A DNA stretch of 64,000 nt from Slackia sp. (GTDB lineage: Bacteria; Actinomycetota; Coriobacteriia; Anaerosomatales; Anaerosomataceae), in the NCBI GenBank assembly GCA_020725885.1, contig DYEA01000007.1:186001-250000 (forward strand), written 5' to 3'. A program made the position numbers and the translations under genes. Below are positions 159 to 53,754 of the stretch, in pieces. The notes beneath the pieces were generated by a model. That model searched no databases. It saw only the letters and a list, made by a program, of their open reading frames with translations, and was not told where the DNA came from. The first letter of the stretch is position 1; every line of letters starts with the position of its first letter.

Positions 159-404
159 ATGGAAGTCAAGCTGTTCGTGAAGGAGGACTGCCCGCGGTGC
201 CCGGCCGCGAAACGGGCCTGCGAAGGCATCGACCGCCTGCGGATCTACGACGTCGACTCGATCGAGGGGCTCGCTGAAGCGTCGTTCCACGGCGTGATGG
301 CGACCCCGACCGTGATCGTGGTCGATTCGAACGGCCGCGAAGTGGCCGCCTGGCGAGGCGTCGCGCCCGAGCCGAGCGAGCTGCGCGCCGTGCTCATCCA
401 CTGA
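159..404 (+). CDS. Small glutaredoxin/thioredoxin-like protein with CPRC motif
   Basis: This 81-residue protein has the thioredoxin-fold layout: a first strand MEVKLFVKE, then the redox motif CPRC at about residues 11-14, and later the cis-proline region MATPTVIVV. Family members reduce disulfides. It lies between nrdD (19 bases upstream) and nrdG (15 bases downstream), so it may supply electrons or maintain thiols for the anaerobic ribonucleotide reductase. NrdD in many anaerobes takes electrons from small glutaredoxin or thioredoxin-like proteins, so this placement makes sense, but the partner is inferred from context. Start ATG with a GGGAGCG upstream. Confidence 0.8.
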   Translation: MEVKLFVKEDCPRCPAAKRACEGIDRLRIYDVDSIEGLAEASFHGVMATPTVIVVDSNGREVAAWRGVAPEPSELRAVLIH

Positions 405-419
405 GAGGCAGCGGCTCAC

Positions 420-1139
420 GTGGCATCGACGACGATCGCATCCGCCGCGCCGCTGCGCCTTGCCGCGTGGCAACCGGCCAGCATGCTCGACTGGCCCGGA
501 CGCATCGCCGTCACGGTCTTCGTGCGCGGCTGCCCCTTCCGGTGCGCCTATTGCCACAATCCGGACCTGCTCGCACCTGGCGCGCAAACGGACTGCGCGG
601 CGCTGCTGGAGCACCTCCAGCGCAGAGCCGGCTGGATCGACGGCGTAGCCATCACGGGAGGCGAGCCGACGAGCGACCCGGCGCTCGTGCCGTTCTTGCG
701 AGCACTGCGCGAGCTCGGGCTGCCGGCGAAGCTCGACACCAACGGGGGCAGGCCTGACGTGCTCGAGCGGCTCTTGGACGAGCAGCTCGTCGACATGGTC
801 GCGATGGACGTGAAGACGGTACCTGAGCGGTACGACGCGCTTACGGGAATGCCCGGCTCGGCCCGGACGGTCATCGCGTCGGCCAAGCTGGTGATCGGAT
901 CGGGCGTGCCGCACGAGTTCCGCACGACGGCTTGGCCAGGCGCATTGACGCTGGACGACTTCCCGCGCATCGCTGCGTCCCTCGAGGGCGGCCAGCGCTA
1001 CGTGATCCAGCAGTTCCGCGCCGAGCGCACGCTCGACCCTGCCGCCGCCGCCGTCTTGCCGTTCAAGAGCGACGCGCTGCACGCAGCCGCTCGCGCGTGC
1101 TCGCCGTACGTCCCGACCGTCGTGAGAGGAGCCGCCTGA
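420..1139 (+). CDS. nrdG: Anaerobic ribonucleoside-triphosphate reductase activating protein (radical SAM)
   Basis: This 239-residue radical SAM protein has the cluster motif [11 protein letters not shown] at about residues 38-48, followed by the GGEPT SAM-binding loop near residue 80. NrdG uses a 4Fe-4S cluster and S-adenosylmethionine to install the glycyl radical on NrdD. The length and the opening [15 protein letters not shown] match the longer NrdG/pyruvate-formate-lyase-activase-like form seen in many anaerobes. The start is a GTG at 420. The TGA stop shares one base with the ATG of dut, so the two are translationally coupled. Its place behind nrdD settles the substrate better than the sequence alone does. 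Confidence 0.9.
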
Positions 1140-16598: not shown

Positions 16599-17117
16599 CT
16601 ATTCGACGTGTATCAGGGACACGATACGCGCGTCGTCCCCGAGCTTGCTCCGTCCCCCGAGGAAGTCCAGCTCGATGAGGAACGCGAAGCCGGCGCACGT
16701 CGCGCCCGTCATCTCGACGAGGTGCCGCTTCGCCGCGGCCGTGCCGCCGGTCGCGAGCACGTCGTCGACGATCAGCACCTTGTCGTCCGGACCGAGCGCG
16801 TCGGCGTGGATCTCCAGCGAGTCCGTCCCGTACTCGAGCTCGTAGTCGGCCCGCGTCGTGCTCCACGGCAGCTTGCCTGGCTTGCGGGCCGGCACGAACC
16901 CGGCGCCCAGCTTGTAGGCCAGAGCGCCTCCGAAGATGAAGCCGCGCGCTTCCGCGCCGAGAACTTTCGTGATACCGGCGCCCTCGAACTCCCGCGCGAT
17001 CACGTCGATCGCTTCCCGAAATCCGTCCGGGCTTGCGAGCAGCGGCGTGATGTCCTTGAAGACGATGCCTTCCTTCGGGAAGTCCGGGATGTCCCTGATG
17101 TACCGAGCGAGATCCAC
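16599..17117 (-). CDS. apt: Adenine phosphoribosyltransferase
   Basis: This 172-residue protein matches Apt over its full length: IRDIPDFPKEGIVFKDITPLL at the start and the PRPP-binding motif VLIVDDVLATGGT near residue 116. It converts adenine plus PRPP to AMP. It sits 65 bases after the K+ channel gene and near hpt, forming a purine salvage neighbourhood that fits the purine permease at 2.2 kb. Confidence 0.97.
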   Translation of the reverse strand: MDLARYIRDIPDFPKEGIVFKDITPLLASPDGFREAIDVIAREFEGAGITKVLGAEARGFIFGGALAYKLGAGFVPARKPGKLPWSTTRADYELEYGTDSLEIHADALGPDDKVLIVDDVLATGGTAAAKRHLVEMTGATCAGFAFLIELDFLGGRSKLGDDARIVSLIHVE

Positions 17118-17182: not shown

Positions 17183-18166
17183 TCACACCAGCTTCTCGAG
17201 CGCCGCGAGCTGTTCGCGTGTGCCTAACGCGATGACTTCGTCTCCAGCGCTGAACCGCGTCTGAGCCCCAGGATTGGCGTTGATCCGGTCCCCTGACCGC
17301 ACGGCGAGCACGAATGCACCTGTGCGGTCCCGGATCTGAGCCTCGGCGATCGTCTTCCCGTCCAGCTCCGACCCTGGCCGGACACGCATGGCATCAAGGC
17401 GATACTCGAGCGCGTCGCCGTGCATCACGACGTCGAGGTAGTCGGCCACGACGGGCCGCGTCAGCATCGCCGCCATCCGCCTACCGCCGATGACGTTCGG
17501 GGTGATGACCCGGTCGGCGCCCGACTTCAGGATCTTGCTTTCCGACGCGATGCTCGTGGAACGAGCCACGATGAACAGGTTCGGATTCAGGGTGCGCGCC
17601 GTCAGCACGATGAACAGGTTGTCGGCGTCCGTGTCGACCGCCGCGACGAGCCCGCGCGCCCGCTCTACGCCGGCCTGCCGCAACACCTCCTCGGACGTCG
17701 CATCGCCGTGGACGAAGAGCCACCCCGCCTCCTCCGCGGCCGCCTTGCACTCCTCACAGGAGTCCACGACGACGAACGGGACCCCTTCCTCTGCGAGCGA
17801 ACGCGCCACCACCGAGCCCACGCGCCCGATGCCGACGACGATGTAGTGGCCCGACAGTTCCGCGATGCGCTTCTGCATGCGACGGCCCTCCACAAGCGTC
17901 CGTAGGTGCCCTTCGACCATGAACTCCACGATCGTGCCGAACGAATAGCCGAGCCCGCCGACCCCCGCCAGGATCAGCCCGATGGTGAGGATCCTTCCAG
18001 CGTCGCTCAGCGGCCGGACCTCCCGGTAGCCGACGGTGGCGATGGTGATGACCGTCATGTACAGGGCGTCCAGCAACGGCCAGCCCTCGACGACGGCGTA
18101 TCCGAGCGTTCCCACGACGAGGATGGCCACCAGCACGGCGACCGCCCGTGCGACGCGGCGGGCCAT
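17183..18166 (-). CDS. Potassium channel with TrkA-N/TrkA-C regulatory domains
   Basis: Two transmembrane helices (about 7-28 and 60-82) flank a pore helix with the selectivity filter TVGYREV. A RCK/TrkA-N nucleotide-binding domain follows, starting HYIVVGIGRVGSVVARSL (a GxGxxG motif), then a TrkA-C domain from about residue 245. This is a two-helix K+ channel gated by an RCK domain, as in MthK-like proteins. The filter TVGYREV differs from TVGYGDV at the G and D positions, which is common in bacterial homologues. The ATG shares one base with the hpt stop (TGATG). Confidence 0.9.
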   Translation of the reverse strand: MARRVARAVAVLVAILVVGTLGYAVVEGWPLLDALYMTVITIATVGYREVRPLSDAGRILTIGLILAGVGGLGYSFGTIVEFMVEGHLRTLVEGRRMQKRIAELSGHYIVVGIGRVGSVVARSLAEEGVPFVVVDSCEECKAAAEEAGWLFVHGDATSEEVLRQAGVERARGLVAAVDTDADNLFIVLTARTLNPNLFIVARSTSIASESKILKSGADRVITPNVIGGRRMAAMLTRPVVADYLDVVMHGDALEYRLDAMRVRPGSELDGKTIAEAQIRDRTGAFVLAVRSGDRINANPGAQTRFSAGDEVIALGTREQLAALEKLV

Positions 18167-18711
18167 CAGCCCATCACCTCGTCGCGGACGACGGCGACGT
18201 ACGGCAGGTTGCGATAGCGGCCGCCCAGGTCGAGCCCGTACCCCACCACGAACACGTCCGGGATCTCCAGCCCCCGGTACGCGATCGGCACGTCGGCGAT
18301 CCGCCTCGCTCGACGGTCGAGGAGCGTGCACACCGCCACGCTGGCAGGCGACCGGCCCGACAAGACGCTGAGGATGTAGTGCAGGGTCAGCCCCGTGTCG
18401 ACCAGGTCCTCGACGACGAGCACGTGCTTGCCCCGGATGTCGTCGTCGAGGTCCTTGACGATGCGCACCGCCTCCCCGCTGCCATACGACGAGATCGCCA
18501 TGAAGTCGAGGGTGAGGTCGAGCTCGATGTGCCTGCACACGTCCGCCAGGAACACGAGCCCGCCCCGCAGAAGCGCTACCAACACCAAGTCCTTGCCACG
18601 GTAGTCCTCGGTGATGCGCGCCCCTATGCTCGAGCAGATCTCGGCGATGTCTTCCTCGGTCAACAGCACGCGCTCGATGTGCGGATCATGGATCGTGTAG
18701 TAGCCGCTCAC
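18166..18711 (-). CDS. hpt: Hypoxanthine(-guanine) phosphoribosyltransferase
   Basis: This 181-residue protein has the HPRT features: DLVLVALLRGGLVFLADV, the flexible-loop SYGSGE, and the PRPP motif VLVVEDLVDTGLTL. It salvages hypoxanthine or guanine to IMP or GMP. The ATG overlaps the stop of the nuclease-like gene (ATGA). Confidence 0.96.
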   Translation of the reverse strand: MSGYYTIHDPHIERVLLTEEDIAEICSSIGARITEDYRGKDLVLVALLRGGLVFLADVCRHIELDLTLDFMAISSYGSGEAVRIVKDLDDDIRGKHVLVVEDLVDTGLTLHYILSVLSGRSPASVAVCTLLDRRARRIADVPIAYRGLEIPDVFVVGYGLDLGGRYRNLPYVAVVRDEVMG

Positions 18712-19151
18712 CGATCGCGCACCTCGTCGTCTGTCACGACGCCACCGCCGTGCTCGTGCGGCTGCTCTCTGCCGGGGATGCCGAACTTGAACAGCAGCTT
18801 CCGGAAGTCCTTCTGATACAGCAACAAGATCTTGACCTCCGGATACAGCTCGCGCAGCCGCCGCACCTTGCGGTTCTTCTTCGTCACGAGCTTCTGGCTC
18901 ATCGTGGTGAGCTCGAGATACAGGTCGAAGTCAGGCAGGTAGAAGTCCGGGGCGAACGAGGCGATCACGTTGCCTTTGGAGTCCCATTCGATCGGGAACG
19001 AGGTGGGCTCGTACTCCCATCGCACGTGATAGAAGTCGAGGATGCGCGCAGCCACGCGCTCGCTGGGATGCGCGAACTTCGTCTCCGCGACCCGCTGGGA
19101 GACCGGCAGCCCGTCTGAGTCCGTCGTTTCCTCGGAGAGTTCGGCAGCCAT
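18708..19151 (-). CDS. Conserved protein with a PD-(D/E)XK-like nuclease core, 147 aa
   Basis: The middle of the protein reads FAPDFYLPDFDLYLELTT, followed by a lysine-rich KNRKVRRLRELYPEVKILLLY. A PDF...ExT pattern with downstream Lys and a final hydrophobic strand is typical of the PD-(D/E)XK/DUF559-like fold, but the usual ExK is ELT here, so catalysis is uncertain. No membrane segment is present. Start ATG at 19151 lies six bases after the MerR stop; a GTG at 19160 is possible. Its position between a MerR regulator and hpt gives no clear role. Confidence 0.65.
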   Translation of the reverse strand: MAAELSEETTDSDGLPVSQRVAETKFAHPSERVAARILDFYHVRWEYEPTSFPIEWDSKGNVIASFAPDFYLPDFDLYLELTTMSQKLVTKKNRKVRRLRELYPEVKILLLYQKDFRKLLFKFGIPGREQPHEHGGGVVTDDEVRDR

Positions 19152-19156
19152 CCGCG

Positions 19157-19867
19157 TCACGTCACGTCTTCGAACGTCCTTGCGAGCGCACGGTGCAGCA
19201 GCGCTCGCTTGAGCGTCGCCGTCAGCTCGGTGAGCTTGCCGAGCGCGTCGAGCAGCTGCTGGCGGACTTCGGGAGTCTTGCTCATGTACGCGGGCATCAA
19301 GACCTGCGAGAAGAACGCGGCCTCGCGCTCCGCGAACGTCTCGTACATGCGCAGGTGCCGGGGCTCGATGCCGAACTTGCGCAGGTCCCAGCACGCGTGC
19401 GCGATGGCGACGTCCGGTTGCGGCAGCTCGTCGCCCGACTCGCCCTTCACGAACGCGATCAGGCCGAACTCCTCGAGCTCCCGCAGGAACGCGACGGGGA
19501 TGCCGAGAGACTCCGGGGCCGCCGACAGCGGCACCGTCTCAGCGGCCTCGAGGGGCAGCCGCGCCGTCTCGCCTGACGTGACCACCGCCTCGATGTCGGC
19601 CGGCACCCGCCCCTTGTCCAGGTCCTCAAGACGCTCGCGGATCACCGCCAGCGGCATGTAGTGCTCCTTCTGGAGCGTGAGCACGAGCTCGAGCCGGGAG
19701 ACGTCGGCTTCGTGGAACTTGCGGTACCCTCCCGCAGTCCGCTCCGGGCTGACGAGCCCCTCCTCTTCCAGGAACCGAACCTTCGAGATGGTGAGGTCCG
19801 GGAAGCGCGGCTTGAGCCGTTCGACCACCTCGCCGATGGTCATGTAGTCCTTGTGTGCGGTCGGCAT
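19157..19867 (-). CDS. ftsR: MerR family transcriptional regulator, FtsR-like
   Basis: The N-terminal winged helix is MerR-type: MTIGEVVERL, then SKVRFLEEEGLVSP and GGYRKFHEADVSRL. A second MerR-like region (about residues 110-180) resembles the doubled arrangement of Rv1828/FtsR. No cysteine effector pair is seen. In Actinomycetota this regulator follows an FHA gene (GarA) as here, three bases away. FtsR controls ftsZ expression in Corynebacterium; the same role here is inference. The ATG has GGAGGGGG upstream inside the FHA gene. Confidence 0.8.
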   Translation of the reverse strand: MPTAHKDYMTIGEVVERLKPRFPDLTISKVRFLEEEGLVSPERTAGGYRKFHEADVSRLELVLTLQKEHYMPLAVIRERLEDLDKGRVPADIEAVVTSGETARLPLEAAETVPLSAAPESLGIPVAFLRELEEFGLIAFVKGESGDELPQPDVAIAHACWDLRKFGIEPRHLRMYETFAEREAAFFSQVLMPAYMSKTPEVRQQLLDALGKLTELTATLKRALLHRALARTFEDVT

Positions 19868-19869
19868 CG

Positions 19870-20319
19870 CTACGCACCCCCTCCTTCGAGGAAGAGCAGC
19901 TGGAAGCGCCCGATCTGCACCAGATCGCCGTGCTTGAGGGTCGCCTTGTCGACGCGGACGTCGCCGACGTACGTGCCGTTGAGCGACCCGGCGTCTTCGA
20001 TGGTCACGCCCTCCGGACCCACCTCGATGACCGCATGGGACCGCGAGACGGTCACGTCGTTGAGGAAGATGTCGCTAGCCGGGTTGCGTCCGACGGTGAG
20101 CCGCGGACGGTCGAGGTAGAAGCGCTCCCCTGCGTCAGGCCCCTTGCGCACGACGAGCATCGGCGCCTCGCCCGACTCGATCCCCGCAGGGCTCTCCGGT
20201 GGCGCCGGAGCGGCGACGGGCTCGAAGGACGCGGTCGTCTCGTGCAGACGCGCGCCGCACGCCGAGCACGTCTTCGCAGCCTCAGGCGCTTCGGCACCGC
20301 ACGCGGGACACACCTGCAT
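19870..20319 (-). CDS. Zinc-ribbon FHA protein, GarA/OdhI-like
   Basis: This 149-residue protein starts with a zinc ribbon (CPACG and CSACG, about residues 4-7 and 18-21). A linker with ETT (HETTASFEP) follows, then an FHA domain (about 55-140) with GRNPASDI, SRSHA and LNGTYV. GarA and OdhI carry an ETT motif that is phosphorylated by Ser/Thr kinases and folds back on the FHA domain, switching off 2-oxoglutarate metabolism enzymes. Here the motif is kept, but a zinc ribbon replaces the usual N-terminus. I start it at ATG 20319 because GGAGG is eight bases upstream. The next gene is the FtsR-like regulator. Confidence 0.82.
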   Translation of the reverse strand: MQVCPACGAEAPEAAKTCSACGARLHETTASFEPVAAPAPPESPAGIESGEAPMLVVRKGPDAGERFYLDRPRLTVGRNPASDIFLNDVTVSRSHAVIEVGPEGVTIEDAGSLNGTYVGDVRVDKATLKHGDLVQIGRFQLLFLEGGGA

Positions 20320-20350
20320 CGCGACCACCTCCGAGCGCTGCAACGCTCGC

Positions 20351-20611
20351 TCAGTCGAGGAAGCCGAACTCCCTCGTCTTGAACGACCGCGCGATCTCCT
20401 CCTCGAGCGCGGACACCACCTGCGGGTTCTCGAGCACGTGCGCGAGCTTCTCCTCGTTCAGGCGGTTCTTGACGTACGGGTCTGACAGCACGTCGGTCAG
20501 CTTCCGACCGTTGTGCACCTCACGGACGATGTACTCGACGACGCGCTCCTCGACGACGTCTGCCGCCATCTCCTCCAGGAACGCCTGGAGCTTCTCGGTC
20601 AAGCTCGCCAC
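20351..20611 (-). CDS. Conserved hypothetical helical protein, 86 aa
   Basis: Family not recognised. The 86 residues are acidic and almost all helical (LTEKLQAFLEEMAADVVEE, then RLNEEKLAHVLENPQVVSAL), with no membrane segment or cysteines. It sits in the operon between the RsiG-like gene (30 bases upstream) and the FHA gene (31 bases downstream). The GTG start at 20611 has AAGGAG six bases upstream. Confidence 0.7.
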   Translation of the reverse strand: MASLTEKLQAFLEEMAADVVEERVVEYIVREVHNGRKLTDVLSDPYVKNRLNEEKLAHVLENPQVVSALEEEIARSFKTREFGFLD

Positions 20612-20641: not shown

Positions 20642-20950
20642 CTACTCGTCTTCCTCGTCGGGCTCATCGGTGACGTCGACGGTCGAGACGCCCCGGAAGT
20701 CGCTCGCGAGGATGTCGATCAGCCGCTCGATGTCGTGCGGCGACACCACGTCCTTGCCGCTCTCCCGCTGCTCCTTGAGCCTCCGCACGAGTTCCGCCCG
20801 CAAGATGTCGATCTTGCCGTGCAAGACCCGCCTGCGGTAGCTGACCCGCTGCTCTTCCGCGTACAGCTCGTCGAGCAGCTCCCGCAGCTCGTCCACCGAC
20901 TTGTGCTCCAAGTCGAGAAGCGGGTTCTCGTCGCTGTGCTTCTCTGCCAT
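20642..20950 (-). CDS. RsiG-like anti-sigma factor candidate, c-di-GMP signature helix
   Basis: This 102-residue helical protein contains EQRVSYRRRVLHGKID (about residues 32-47). It fits the RsiG c-di-GMP-binding signature E-x3-S-x2-R-x3-Q-x3-D with one change: His at the Gln position. The next residues ILRAELVRRL also match how I know RsiG proteins continue. RsiG binds the WhiG sigma factor when armed with c-di-GMP in Streptomyces; short one-motif versions occur in deep actinobacterial lineages and act as homodimers. No sigma gene is next to it here. Start ATG 20950 is chosen for GGAGGGGG upstream. It heads an eight-gene operon with hpt. Confidence 0.68.
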   Translation of the reverse strand: MAEKHSDENPLLDLEHKSVDELRELLDELYAEEQRVSYRRRVLHGKIDILRAELVRRLKEQRESGKDVVSPHDIERLIDILASDFRGVSTVDVTDEPDEEDE

Positions 20951-27891: not shown

Positions 27892-28719
27892 GTGAAGTAC
27901 TCGCGTTTCGAGACCCTCGTCATCACCCTTGGCGCCGCCGTCGTCGCAGCGAGCGTGCTCGTGCCGCGCGACGCCGTGTTGCAGTGGCCTGAGCTGGTCG
28001 CCCAAGTGCTCCTGTTCTTGACGTTCGCGGCCGCGGCCCACTGGGGACGGAACGGGGGCTCGATCGTCGCGGCCGCCTCGGCGCTTGTGTACGTGCTGAC
28101 ACGCGTGCCGCTGCTTGCAGACCAAGGACTGACGAATGACGTCGCTGGAGCGCTGCTGGCACGGCTCGCGGCTTTCGCGGTCGTCGGCATCGTCGGCGGC
28201 GAGCTGTTCGGGCGGATCAAGTACTTCCTTGCGCGCGTCGACGGCTCGATCATGCTCGACGAGTACACGCAGGTGTACAACCGCCGCTACTGCTCGCAGG
28301 CGTTGCGGAACGCCATCGCCCAGTACCAGCGCTACCAGACCCCGTACTCCGTCGTGCTGCTGTCGCTCTCGCCGGCGCTGTTCGCGGAGCTGCGCCCCAC
28401 CCGCCAGCACGCGCTGCTGAAGTCGGTCGCCGGCCACATCCGCAGCGACATCAGGCTCGTCGACGACGTCGGCTACCTCGGCGACGGCCGCTACCTGCTG
28501 ATGCTGCCGAACACGCCGAAGTCAGGCGCGGAAGTCGCAGCCGACCGCGTCCGGGCCGGCGTGCGCGATCTGATCGGCGCCAAAGACGAGTCCGTCTCAG
28601 CGACGGTGCTCGGAGTGGCGGAGGACGCCAGCGCGATCTGCGAGCTGGCACGGTCGCTCGAGCCGCAGGCGCCCCCACGGCTCGACGACGTGTGCGCGAG
28701 CGCCCCGGAGCAGGCTTAG
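27892..28719 (+). CDS. Membrane protein with a degenerate GGDEF domain
   Basis: Four or so hydrophobic helices span residues 5-110. A GGDEF-like domain follows: DEYTQVYNRRYCSQAL (like the DxLTgLxNRR start) and RLVDDVGYLGDGRYLLMLPN. The GGDEF signature reads LGDGRYL, so the metal and GTP-binding residues are lost and diguanylate cyclase activity is unlikely. It may bind a nucleotide or act as a scaffold. It follows the pilin-like gene, suggesting a role in surface structures. Confidence 0.8.
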   Translation: MKYSRFETLVITLGAAVVAASVLVPRDAVLQWPELVAQVLLFLTFAAAAHWGRNGGSIVAAASALVYVLTRVPLLADQGLTNDVAGALLARLAAFAVVGIVGGELFGRIKYFLARVDGSIMLDEYTQVYNRRYCSQALRNAIAQYQRYQTPYSVVLLSLSPALFAELRPTRQHALLKSVAGHIRSDIRLVDDVGYLGDGRYLLMLPNTPKSGAEVAADRVRAGVRDLIGAKDESVSATVLGVAEDASAICELARSLEPQAPPRLDDVCASAPEQA

Positions 28720-51588: not shown

Positions 51589-53754
51589 CTACATCGGGAG
51601 CCGCCGGCCCATCAGCACGATGAACGCCTCCGCGATCTCGGGATCGAACTGCGAGCCAATGCAGCAGTCGATCTCCTGAAGAGCCGCGATCGGCGACATC
51701 GCCGCCCGGTACGGGCGCTCGGAAGTCATCGCGTCGTAGGCATCGCACACGGCGAGCAGTCTGGCCTCGTAGGGGATGCGCTGGCCAGCAAGGCCGTCCG
51801 GGTACCCCGAGCCGTCGTACCGCTCGTGGTGGTGGCGCACCCACGACGCCACGTCGTCGAAGCCGCTCGACCGCATGATCCGCTCGCCGAGCAGCGCGTG
51901 CTCGCGCACGTGCATCACTTCGGCGGCGGTGAGCGGCGACCGCTTCCTGAGCACGCGGTCGGACACCCCGATCTTGCCGACGTCGTGCAGCAGCGCGGCG
52001 ATCTCGAGCCGCCGGATGTGCTCGTGCGGCAACCCGAGCTGGTGGGCCAACTCGGTGACGAGCAGCGCCACATTCTTCGAGTGGTACTGGGTGGCCGGGT
52101 CCCGCGCATCCACGGCCACGGCAAGGGCCCGGATGGCCCGCACCTGCGTCTCGACTTCCAGCCGCTCGATCTCGTCCTTCGCGTCGAGCGACGTCACGAC
52201 GCTGGGGTCGTACACGGCGAATCCGCCGCGGTCGTGCCGCTTCGCCCAGAAGAGCGCGCCGGCGGCGCACCGCATGAGCTCGGCGCGCGTCCCCGCGTGC
52301 AGGGGGTACACGGCGATGCCGGCCGTGGCCTGCAACGGGCTGCCAGAGACCGAGTCGCACACCGTGCGGACCTCGGCAAGCGCGCGCATGGCGAACCGTT
52401 GCGCGTGCTCGGCGGAGGCGCCGCCCATCACCACCGCGAACTCGTCGCCACCGAGCCGTCCGATGTGGTCAGACGACCGCACGCAGCGGGCGATCGCCTC
52501 GGCGGCGCACCTGAGGAGCTCGTCGCCCTCCTTGTGCCCGCACGCGTCGTTCAAGCGCCTGAATCCGTCGATGTCGAACATGACGAGCGCCACGGATCCG
52601 TTCGCGCGATCGGCGATGTCAAGCTCGGTCTGGAGCGCGTCCTGGAACGGGCGGTACGCCTGCAAGCCGGTGACGGGGTCGGTGGTAAGCGCACGCGCGA
52701 GGCGCGCGTTCTCGACCCCGGCGAGCATCTGCCGCACCACGATCAGGGCTGCAAGCGCCGTCCCGGCGACCGCCATGGGCGGCCTGAGAACCTGCACCAC
52801 CAGAGGCGCCGCACCCGCAGCGAACGCGTAGGCGCACGCGAGCACGAGCGCGACCGGGACCACCAGCGAGAAAAGCCCGTGCGCGGGCGGTGCCGTGCGC
52901 GGGACGGGAGTCGCTCTCTCCGATGCCCGACCGGCGTCCCTCAGCCTCCTCGCCATCCCTGCGAAGGCGAGCCACATGCCAGCCGCCCACATGGACTCGA
53001 CAAGCGTGTCCCAGGCGCTCGCGGGGCGCACGACGGCCCCGTACAGCCACGCAGGCCAGATCGCGGTGGCTAAGGCGTAGATCCACAGCCCCGCAAGAAC
53101 GCGTTGGAACCACGAGTCGTCGCTGATGATGTCCGTCGCCCCGTACGCAGCCGCTGTCAGCATGACCAGCAGTGCCCCGAAAGCGCTGTACACGGCGGCG
53201 GATACGCCTTGGACCGGATCGAGCGAGCTGGTGGCCGCCATCAGCGGGCTGACGAACAGGCCGAGCACTCCGACGGCAGCCGCAACCCCGACTGCGACGG
53301 CGTCCACTGCATGGCGGGCGACCGCAAGCCGGCTGTACGCACGCATGTCGACCGACCGCGCGAGAGCTGCGATCATGAGGACGGCAGCGCTTGCGGTCAG
53401 AACCTCCGGAAGGATCGGCCATCCGCTCTCGATGTTCCGCCCTGCGAGGACGTAAAGGCTCACGAACGTCTCGCTCGCGGCGACCAACGATATCGCAGCG
53501 GCGAGCGCCGCGAGCACCCGTCGTTCCACGCCGGACGATTTGCGGCTGGTGAGCACAGAGGTGACGGCCGCGCCCCAGAACGGGACGAGGAAGACGGCCT
53601 GACGCACCGCTTCAAGGATCCCGGAGTGCGGCGTCACGCTAAGGACGACGTAGGCGCTGACGAACACGATAGAAGCGACGACGAACGGAGCCGCCGGCCG
53701 CACCGCGAGCGCTGATCTGCTGGGCTCTTCAGCGGAGACGGCTGTCGCGTCCAT
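51589..53754 (-). CDS. Membrane GGDEF-HD-GYP protein (c-di-GMP synthesis and breakdown)
   Basis: The 721-residue protein has about eight or nine N-terminal membrane helices (to about residue 355), a GGDEF domain with the intact motif RLGGDEFAVVMG, and a C-terminal HD-GYP domain with HDVGKIGVSDRVL and HHERYDGSGYPDGLAG. Both active sites look complete, so it may make and break c-di-GMP. The ATG at 53754 follows a divergent promoter region. Confidence 0.92.
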   Translation of the reverse strand: MDATAVSAEEPSRSALAVRPAAPFVVASIVFVSAYVVLSVTPHSGILEAVRQAVFLVPFWGAAVTSVLTSRKSSGVERRVLAALAAAISLVAASETFVSLYVLAGRNIESGWPILPEVLTASAAVLMIAALARSVDMRAYSRLAVARHAVDAVAVGVAAAVGVLGLFVSPLMAATSSLDPVQGVSAAVYSAFGALLVMLTAAAYGATDIISDDSWFQRVLAGLWIYALATAIWPAWLYGAVVRPASAWDTLVESMWAAGMWLAFAGMARRLRDAGRASERATPVPRTAPPAHGLFSLVVPVALVLACAYAFAAGAAPLVVQVLRPPMAVAGTALAALIVVRQMLAGVENARLARALTTDPVTGLQAYRPFQDALQTELDIADRANGSVALVMFDIDGFRRLNDACGHKEGDELLRCAAEAIARCVRSSDHIGRLGGDEFAVVMGGASAEHAQRFAMRALAEVRTVCDSVSGSPLQATAGIAVYPLHAGTRAELMRCAAGALFWAKRHDRGGFAVYDPSVVTSLDAKDEIERLEVETQVRAIRALAVAVDARDPATQYHSKNVALLVTELAHQLGLPHEHIRRLEIAALLHDVGKIGVSDRVLRKRSPLTAAEVMHVREHALLGERIMRSSGFDDVASWVRHHHERYDGSGYPDGLAGQRIPYEARLLAVCDAYDAMTSERPYRAAMSPIAALQEIDCCIGSQFDPEIAEAFIVLMGRRLPM

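What the first reader, a model, noticed from the sequence alone, without database searches (positions are those of the whole stretch)
20642..20950. RsiG-like c-di-GMP anti-sigma candidate with His in the signature
EQRVSYRRRVLHGKID fits E-x3-S-x2-R-x3-Q-x3-D except for His in place of Gln. The rest of the helix also matches RsiG as I know it. Single-motif RsiG proteins are known from deep actinobacterial branches. The gene heads an operon with FHA, MerR and hpt genes, and the window holds an active-looking c-di-GMP enzyme. A sigma partner is not adjacent.
Basis: partly seen in the sequence, partly recalled or inferred. Interest (0 to 1): 0.75.

Follow-up and report, generated by a model that had tools for sequence, protein, structure and literature searches.

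The report
Single-motif RsiG switch protein, Anaerosomatales
The gene encodes a small RsiG protein, a known kind of bacterial off-switch that uses the messenger c-di-GMP to hold the sigma factor WhiG; the His reported as odd is a known working variant, and comparison with relatives indicates that in this little-studied actinobacterial order the switch controls type IV pilus (surface hair) genes.

Summary
Window 20642-20950 (minus strand, ATG at 20950, 102 aa) encodes a single-motif RsiG: Pfam RsiG E 9e-19, best PDB match Rubrobacter RsiG (7lq4) 3e-10, signature E-x3-S-x2-R-x3-H-x3-D. The His is not new: Conexibacter RsiG has it and binds c-di-GMP (PMC8325347). His is fixed in all 65 RsiGs read from this order (Anaerosomatales, class Coriobacteriia). 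Within the class, RsiG (65 of 69 genomes) and WhiG (66 of 69) occur in this order and in none of 329 other genomes. Beyond the finding: in all 30 genomes examined the pilC-pilA intergenic region carries a flagellar/WhiG-type promoter (20 exact, 28 within one mismatch; shuffles reach this in 0.1%), and a second one precedes a pseudopilin gene in most of 15. So the switch most likely gates type IV pili, as proposed for Rubrobacter. rsiG is also tied to a GarA-like FHA gene and an Rv1828/FtsR-like MerR gene in all 65 named relatives. New member of a known kind, with a clade extension and a predicted regulon.

The parts
20642..20950 (-). rsiG: single-motif RsiG, 102 aa, signature E-x3-S-x2-R-x3-H-x3-D
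   Evidence: Pfam PF22802 9.1e-19; PDB 7lq4/7lq3/7lq2 RsiG about 3e-10; His in 65 of 65 order members
20351..20611 (-). 86-aa ORF of unknown family, conserved next to rsiG in Anaerosomatales and Aquicultor-type genomes
   Evidence: No Pfam hit; syntenic
19870..20343 (-). Zinc-ribbon + FHA protein, GarA/OdhI-like (true start perhaps ATG at 20319)
   Evidence: PDB GarA 1.4e-28; Pfam FHA and Zn_Ribbon_1; next to rsiG in 65 of 65 loci
19157..19867 (-). MerR regulator, Rv1828/FtsR-like
   Evidence: PDB 5ydc Rv1828 7e-5 as the only hit; Pfam MerR_1; synteny
18708..19151 (-). Unnamed ORF (likely start ATG at 19151), order-specific neighbour
18166..18711 (-). hpt: phosphoribosyltransferase
   Evidence: Pfam Pribosyltran 4.8e-27
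51589..53754 (-). GGDEF + HD-GYP enzyme, both active sites intact: candidate to make or degrade the c-di-GMP signal
   Evidence: GGDEF hit at G000:C6:238228-238683; sequence

Best explanation
The protein is a single-motif RsiG. Two copies form an antiparallel coiled coil; each supplies one E-S-R-H-D motif, and together they hold a c-di-GMP dimer. In that armed state the dimer binds the one WhiG sigma factor of the cell and keeps it from RNA polymerase. When c-di-GMP falls, WhiG is released and transcribes from T(A/C)AAG-N14/15-GCCGATA(A/C) promoters, chiefly those of type IV pilin genes. Shown here by sequence: family membership, motif, the WhiG partner with conserved c-di-GMP contacts, and promoters conserved ahead of pilin genes across the order. 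Inferred from the Rubrobacter, Conexibacter and Streptomyces work: dimerisation, c-di-GMP binding, sequestration, and the sign of regulation.
For: RsiG HMM and PDB matches. The published His-form RsiGCw binds c-di-GMP. One WhiG/FliA-type sigma in the genome, 282.6 bits against a cut-off of 189.6, matching Streptomyces WhiG at 7e-91. WhiG K37/G41/R42 align exactly to Streptomyces K57/G61/R62, which contact c-di-GMP, and K-x3-G-R is present in all 31 order WhiGs aligned; FliA lacks the Lys and Gly. RsiG 65/69 and WhiG 66/69 in the order, 0/329 in the rest of the class. pilA promoter in 30/30 genomes: 20 exact, 8 with one mismatch, 2 with two; the antisense strand almost never scores, and shuffles reach one mismatch in 0.1%. 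A second promoter before a pseudopilin gene in most of 15 genomes, with only 3 antisense hits in all these loci. Twelve GGDEF domains in the genome. Cultured relatives are non-motile but piliated.
Against: No biochemical test was possible. Co-occurrence of RsiG and WhiG within the class reflects one or few evolutionary events, so it is not many independent confirmations. rsiG and whiG are 74 kb apart. One order member (L193) has Gly in place of the motif Glu. The promoter sites are predictions; no transcription start data were available.
Confidence: 0.83

Rival explanations
1. It is a true RsiG by descent, but here it holds WhiG without c-di-GMP or with another ligand, the His having changed ligand affinity or made it sensitive to pH or metal.
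For: Gln-to-His in a ligand-stacking position; only 102 aa; one order member has lost the motif Glu.
Against: His-form RsiGCw binds c-di-GMP and not c-di-AMP. E, S, R and D are kept in 64 of 65 members, and WhiG keeps its c-di-GMP contact residues. The genome has 12 GGDEF domains.
Confidence: 0.1
2. RsiG acts on another sigma factor, such as the SigB/SigF-like one at G000:C6:354833-355492, and the pilin promoters are read by WhiG without RsiG control.
For: rsiG is not next to whiG; the SigB/F-like sigma is also on this contig.
Against: All five characterised single-motif RsiGs bind WhiG. WhiG and RsiG are present together and absent together in the class, while SigB/F-like proteins of similar score are widespread in genomes without RsiG. 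The K-G-R contacts are in WhiG.
Confidence: 0.04
3. Chance coiled-coil resemblance: a basic helix that happens to fit the signature.
For: Coiled coils are low in complexity, and the signature has five fixed positions (general knowledge).
Against: 67 bits against a curated RsiG model with cut-off 27, none of 14 control genomes hit, 65 of 69 order genomes hit once each, conserved synteny.
Confidence: 0.01

Closest known systems
Rubrobacter radiotolerans RsiG (PDB 7lq2-7lq4), PMC8325347
   Same: Small single-motif RsiG; the whole motif helix aligns; WhiG partner; WhiG-type promoters at type IV pilus genes.
   Different: Rubrobacter has Gln at the stacking position; this one has His and about seven more residues after the helix. 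WhiG here resembles Streptomyces WhiG more than Rubrobacter WhiG.
Conexibacter woesei RsiG (RsiGCw), PMC8325347
   Same: Single motif with His; shown to bind c-di-GMP alone and better with WhiG.
   Different: Class Thermoleophilia, not Coriobacteriia; its regulon was not reported.
Streptomyces venezuelae RsiG-WhiG (PDB 6pfj, 6pfv)
   Same: Same signature residues; WhiG contact residues K57/G61/R62 conserved here as K37/G41/R42.
   Different: Twin-motif monomer that controls sporulation.
GarA/OdhI-FtsR gene pair (PMC6683498)
   Same: FHA and MerR genes directly downstream of rsiG match this conserved actinobacterial pair.
   Different: In the genomes read here rsiG sits just upstream of the pair; PMC8325347 does not mention the linkage, and PMC6683498 says the region upstream of odhI varies.

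Membership tests
RsiG (single-motif) | Matches the RsiG family profile above its curated cut-off | tested here: met
   PF22802 67.4 bits, cut-off 27
RsiG (single-motif) | E(X)3S(X)2R(X)3[Q/H](X)3D motif | tested here: met
   EQRVSYRRRVLHGKID; His accepted by PMC8325347
RsiG (single-motif) | One motif only, about 100 aa | tested here: met
   102 aa, one motif
RsiG (single-motif) | WhiG-family sigma in the same genome | tested here: met
   P0002, G000:C6:132209-133003
RsiG (single-motif) | Partner WhiG keeps the c-di-GMP contacts Lys, Gly, Arg in sigma-2 | tested here: met
   K37, G41, R42
RsiG (single-motif) | Homodimeric antiparallel coiled coil | not testable with these tools
   No complex prediction or binding assay available
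RsiG (single-motif) | Binds c-di-GMP and sequesters WhiG with it | not testable with these tools
   Needs purified protein
WhiG regulon of type IV pili (Rubrobacter type) | Flagellar/WhiG-type promoters directly upstream of pil genes | tested here: met
   30/30 pilA upstream regions; pseudopilin sites
WhiG regulon of type IV pili (Rubrobacter type) | Transcription starts mapped at these promoters | not testable with these tools
   No RNA data

The most novel reading that the evidence does not exclude
In Anaerosomatales c-di-GMP gates surface genes at two levels: it arms RsiG to block WhiG initiation at pilin promoters, and at least one WhiG-type promoter (G000:C4:52700-52727, exact TAAA-N16-GCCGATAA) feeds straight into a c-di-GMP-I riboswitch with a terminator-like hairpin ahead of a secreted-protein gene. 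The rsiG-garA-ftsR gene block further couples this to Ser/Thr-kinase/GarA signalling and cell division.
Probability: 0.3. Interest if true: 0.65.

Novelty: new member of a known kind. Interest (0 to 1): 0.5.

Why it matters
It extends single-motif RsiG from the Rubrobacteria and Thermoleophilia of the 2021 study to a whole order of Coriobacteriia (and to Aquicultor- and Solincola-type genomes). It also supplies comparative evidence, independent of the Rubrobacter transcription data, that an old job of the RsiG-WhiG switch is type IV pili. One cultured member, Parvivirga hydrogeniphila, makes pili only on insoluble iron, which makes a c-di-GMP-to-pilus link during mineral respiration directly testable.

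Tried and rejected
The WhiG-promoter match in the window (16937-16963, two mismatches) is within chance expectation (0.35 expected) and lies over another gene. The site before pilC (337221) has two mismatches and overlaps the end of pilT; it recurs with two mismatches in the two closest relatives but in no consistent form beyond, so it is not counted. No Rfam riboswitch is in the window. The two weak RsiG hits outside the order (G244, G258) are below cut-off and lack the motif. The idea that the His is unusual was rejected. The His count from the search for related loci alone would be biased, because its search peptides include VLHGKIDI; the count of 65 comes from profile hits instead. The RsiG tree has few columns; it fits vertical inheritance but does not prove it. 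No structure prediction was run: a monomer model would only restate the coiled coil already solved in 7lq3. The Rubrobacter sigma-4 contacts (T237, R239, K243) could not be placed with certainty on this WhiG and are not claimed.

Full report
What is there. The ORF at window 20642-20950 on the minus strand encodes MAEKHSDENPLLDLEHKSVDELRELLDELYAEEQRVSYRRRVLHGKIDILRAELVRRLKEQRESGKDVVSPHDIERLIDILASDFRGVSTVDVTDEPDEEDE. Pfam gives RsiG at 9.1e-19. Against the PDB the best matches are Rubrobacter RsiG chains at about 3e-10, then the Streptomyces RsiG (deposited as AmfC) at 8e-9. Pfam RsiG hits none of 14 control genomes.

The His. PMC8325347 states that the Gln of the first motif is often His in other RsiGs, that His can make the same stacking contact, and that Conexibacter RsiG with His binds c-di-GMP with Kd 25 uM alone and 1.7 uM with WhiG. 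In this order all 65 RsiGs recovered by profile search carry His; 64 have the full E-S-R-H-D set and one (L193) has Gly for Glu. The Gln form is typical of the family that contains the Rubrobacter-like sequences (f40), although at least one member there (L159) also has His.

The organism. The closest named relatives are Coriobacteriia bacteria, among them EMTCatB1 and bacteria named Anaerosomatales. The genome is 1.83 Mb. Anaerosoma and Parvivirga, the cultured members of the order, are non-motile rods with pili-like appendages; in Parvivirga these appear only with ferrihydrite (PMC9686372).

The partner. Of six genes with sigma region 2, one is a clear WhiG/FliA: G000:C6:132209-133003, 282.6 bits to TIGR02479 (cut-off 189.6), against 133 for the next, a SigB/F-like protein. 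It matches Streptomyces WhiG at 7e-91. In that ungapped stretch its K37, G41 and R42 fall on K57, G61 and R62, the WhiG residues that touch c-di-GMP in the crystal. The K-x3-G-R pattern is present in all 31 order WhiGs aligned; FliA lacks the Lys and Gly, and the second FliA-like proteins L284 and L285 lack the Gly. rsiG and whiG lie 74 kb apart here and 58 to 105 kb apart on one contig in 18 relatives (computed from the positions).

Distribution. In 398 genomes of the class, RsiG above cut-off is in 65 and WhiG above cut-off in 66, all within the 69 genomes of this order; 62 have both, and most of the exceptions are fragmented or incomplete assemblies. Because this is one clade it is one evolutionary contrast, not many. 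Across the phylum sample 245 of 396 genomes have RsiG, and 23 of 25 RsiG genomes tested outside the class have a WhiG-like sigma at E below 1e-30.

The regulon. The own genome has a type IV pilus cluster at about G000:C6:329447-345686 with PilB, PilT, PilC, a pilin (N_methyl), a prepilin-peptidase-like gene and pseudopilins (gene names beyond the ATPases and the pilin rest on sequence inspection). WhiG-type promoter matches lie between pilC and the pilin (TCAAGCGCGGCTTGCAGATGCCGATAC, 335894-335920) and before a pseudopilin (334468-334495). Genome-wide, TMAA-N16-GCCGATAM with at most one mismatch has 12 matches against 1 for the reversed pattern. In 30 order genomes the 130 bases after pilC hold the promoter in every case: 20 exact, 8 with one mismatch, 2 with two; dinucleotide shuffles reach one mismatch in 0.1% and two in 1.7% of cases. 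The spacer varies while the boxes stay, as expected under selection on the promoter. In 15 genomes read further, nearly all sense-strand matches lie just ahead of the pilin and the pseudopilin gene, with only 3 antisense hits in all these loci. A third site (G000:C6:35928, before a short gene upstream of a GspE/PilB-like ATPase) is kept in the relative G003. The Rubrobacter study inferred the same kind of regulon.

Neighbourhood. rsiG-FHA-MerR is the gene order in all 65 named relatives, including Aquicultor, Solincola and Solirubrobacterales, as far as the contigs reach. The FHA protein matches GarA at 1.4e-28; the MerR protein has one PDB hit, Rv1828, at 7e-5. PMC6683498 says ftsR is always downstream of odhI/garA in Actinobacteria. 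I found no paper in the library that links RsiG with FHA or with Coriobacteriia; the library is not complete.

Signal enzymes. The genome has 12 GGDEF domains. The one at window 51589-53754 has intact GGDEF, I-site-like RSSD and HD-GYP residues. The one at 27892-28719 (+) is degenerate (GDGRY in place of GGDEF).

A second layer. The exact flagellar-type promoter at G000:C4:52700-52727 lies 41 bases ahead of a c-di-GMP-I-GGC riboswitch (62.8 bits, gathering 59), followed by a strong hairpin and a T run, then a 191-aa ORF with an apparent signal sequence. This suggests a second c-di-GMP gate on a WhiG transcript. I could not check it in relatives.

Verdict. The protein is a new member of a known kind; the His is ordinary. 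What is added is the order-wide presence, the conserved pilin promoters and the gene linkage to a garA-ftsR-type pair.

Noticed in passing
L260:1701-1857 (G000:C4:52700-52856): Exact WhiG-type promoter directly ahead of a c-di-GMP-I-GGC riboswitch with a terminator-like hairpin, before a gene for a secreted protein; sortase and LPxTG-type surface protein genes lie nearby.
   Followed up: partly
[quoted passage not shown]
   Followed up: partly
window 20351-20611 (-): 86-aa protein of no Pfam family between rsiG and FHA, conserved in Anaerosomatales and Aquicultor-type genomes but not found in the Solirubrobacterales loci.
   Followed up: partly
G000:C15:198721-198748 and C15:97139-97166: WhiG-type promoter matches before a response-regulator gene beside CheR/CheA-like genes, and before a GGDEF gene; if real, the switch also feeds its own signal enzymes and pilus chemosensing.
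   Followed up: no
window 27892-28719 (+): Membrane protein with a degenerate GGDEF domain (GDGRY in place of GGDEF).
   Followed up: no
L193:about 330-640 (-): One order member has Gly in place of the motif Glu of RsiG (GQRLSYRRRVLHGKID); low-completeness genome, could be error or drift.
   Followed up: no
L284, L285: Some RsiG genomes outside the class carry a second FliA-like sigma without the c-di-GMP-contact Gly, perhaps a flagellar sigma that escapes RsiG.
   Followed up: no
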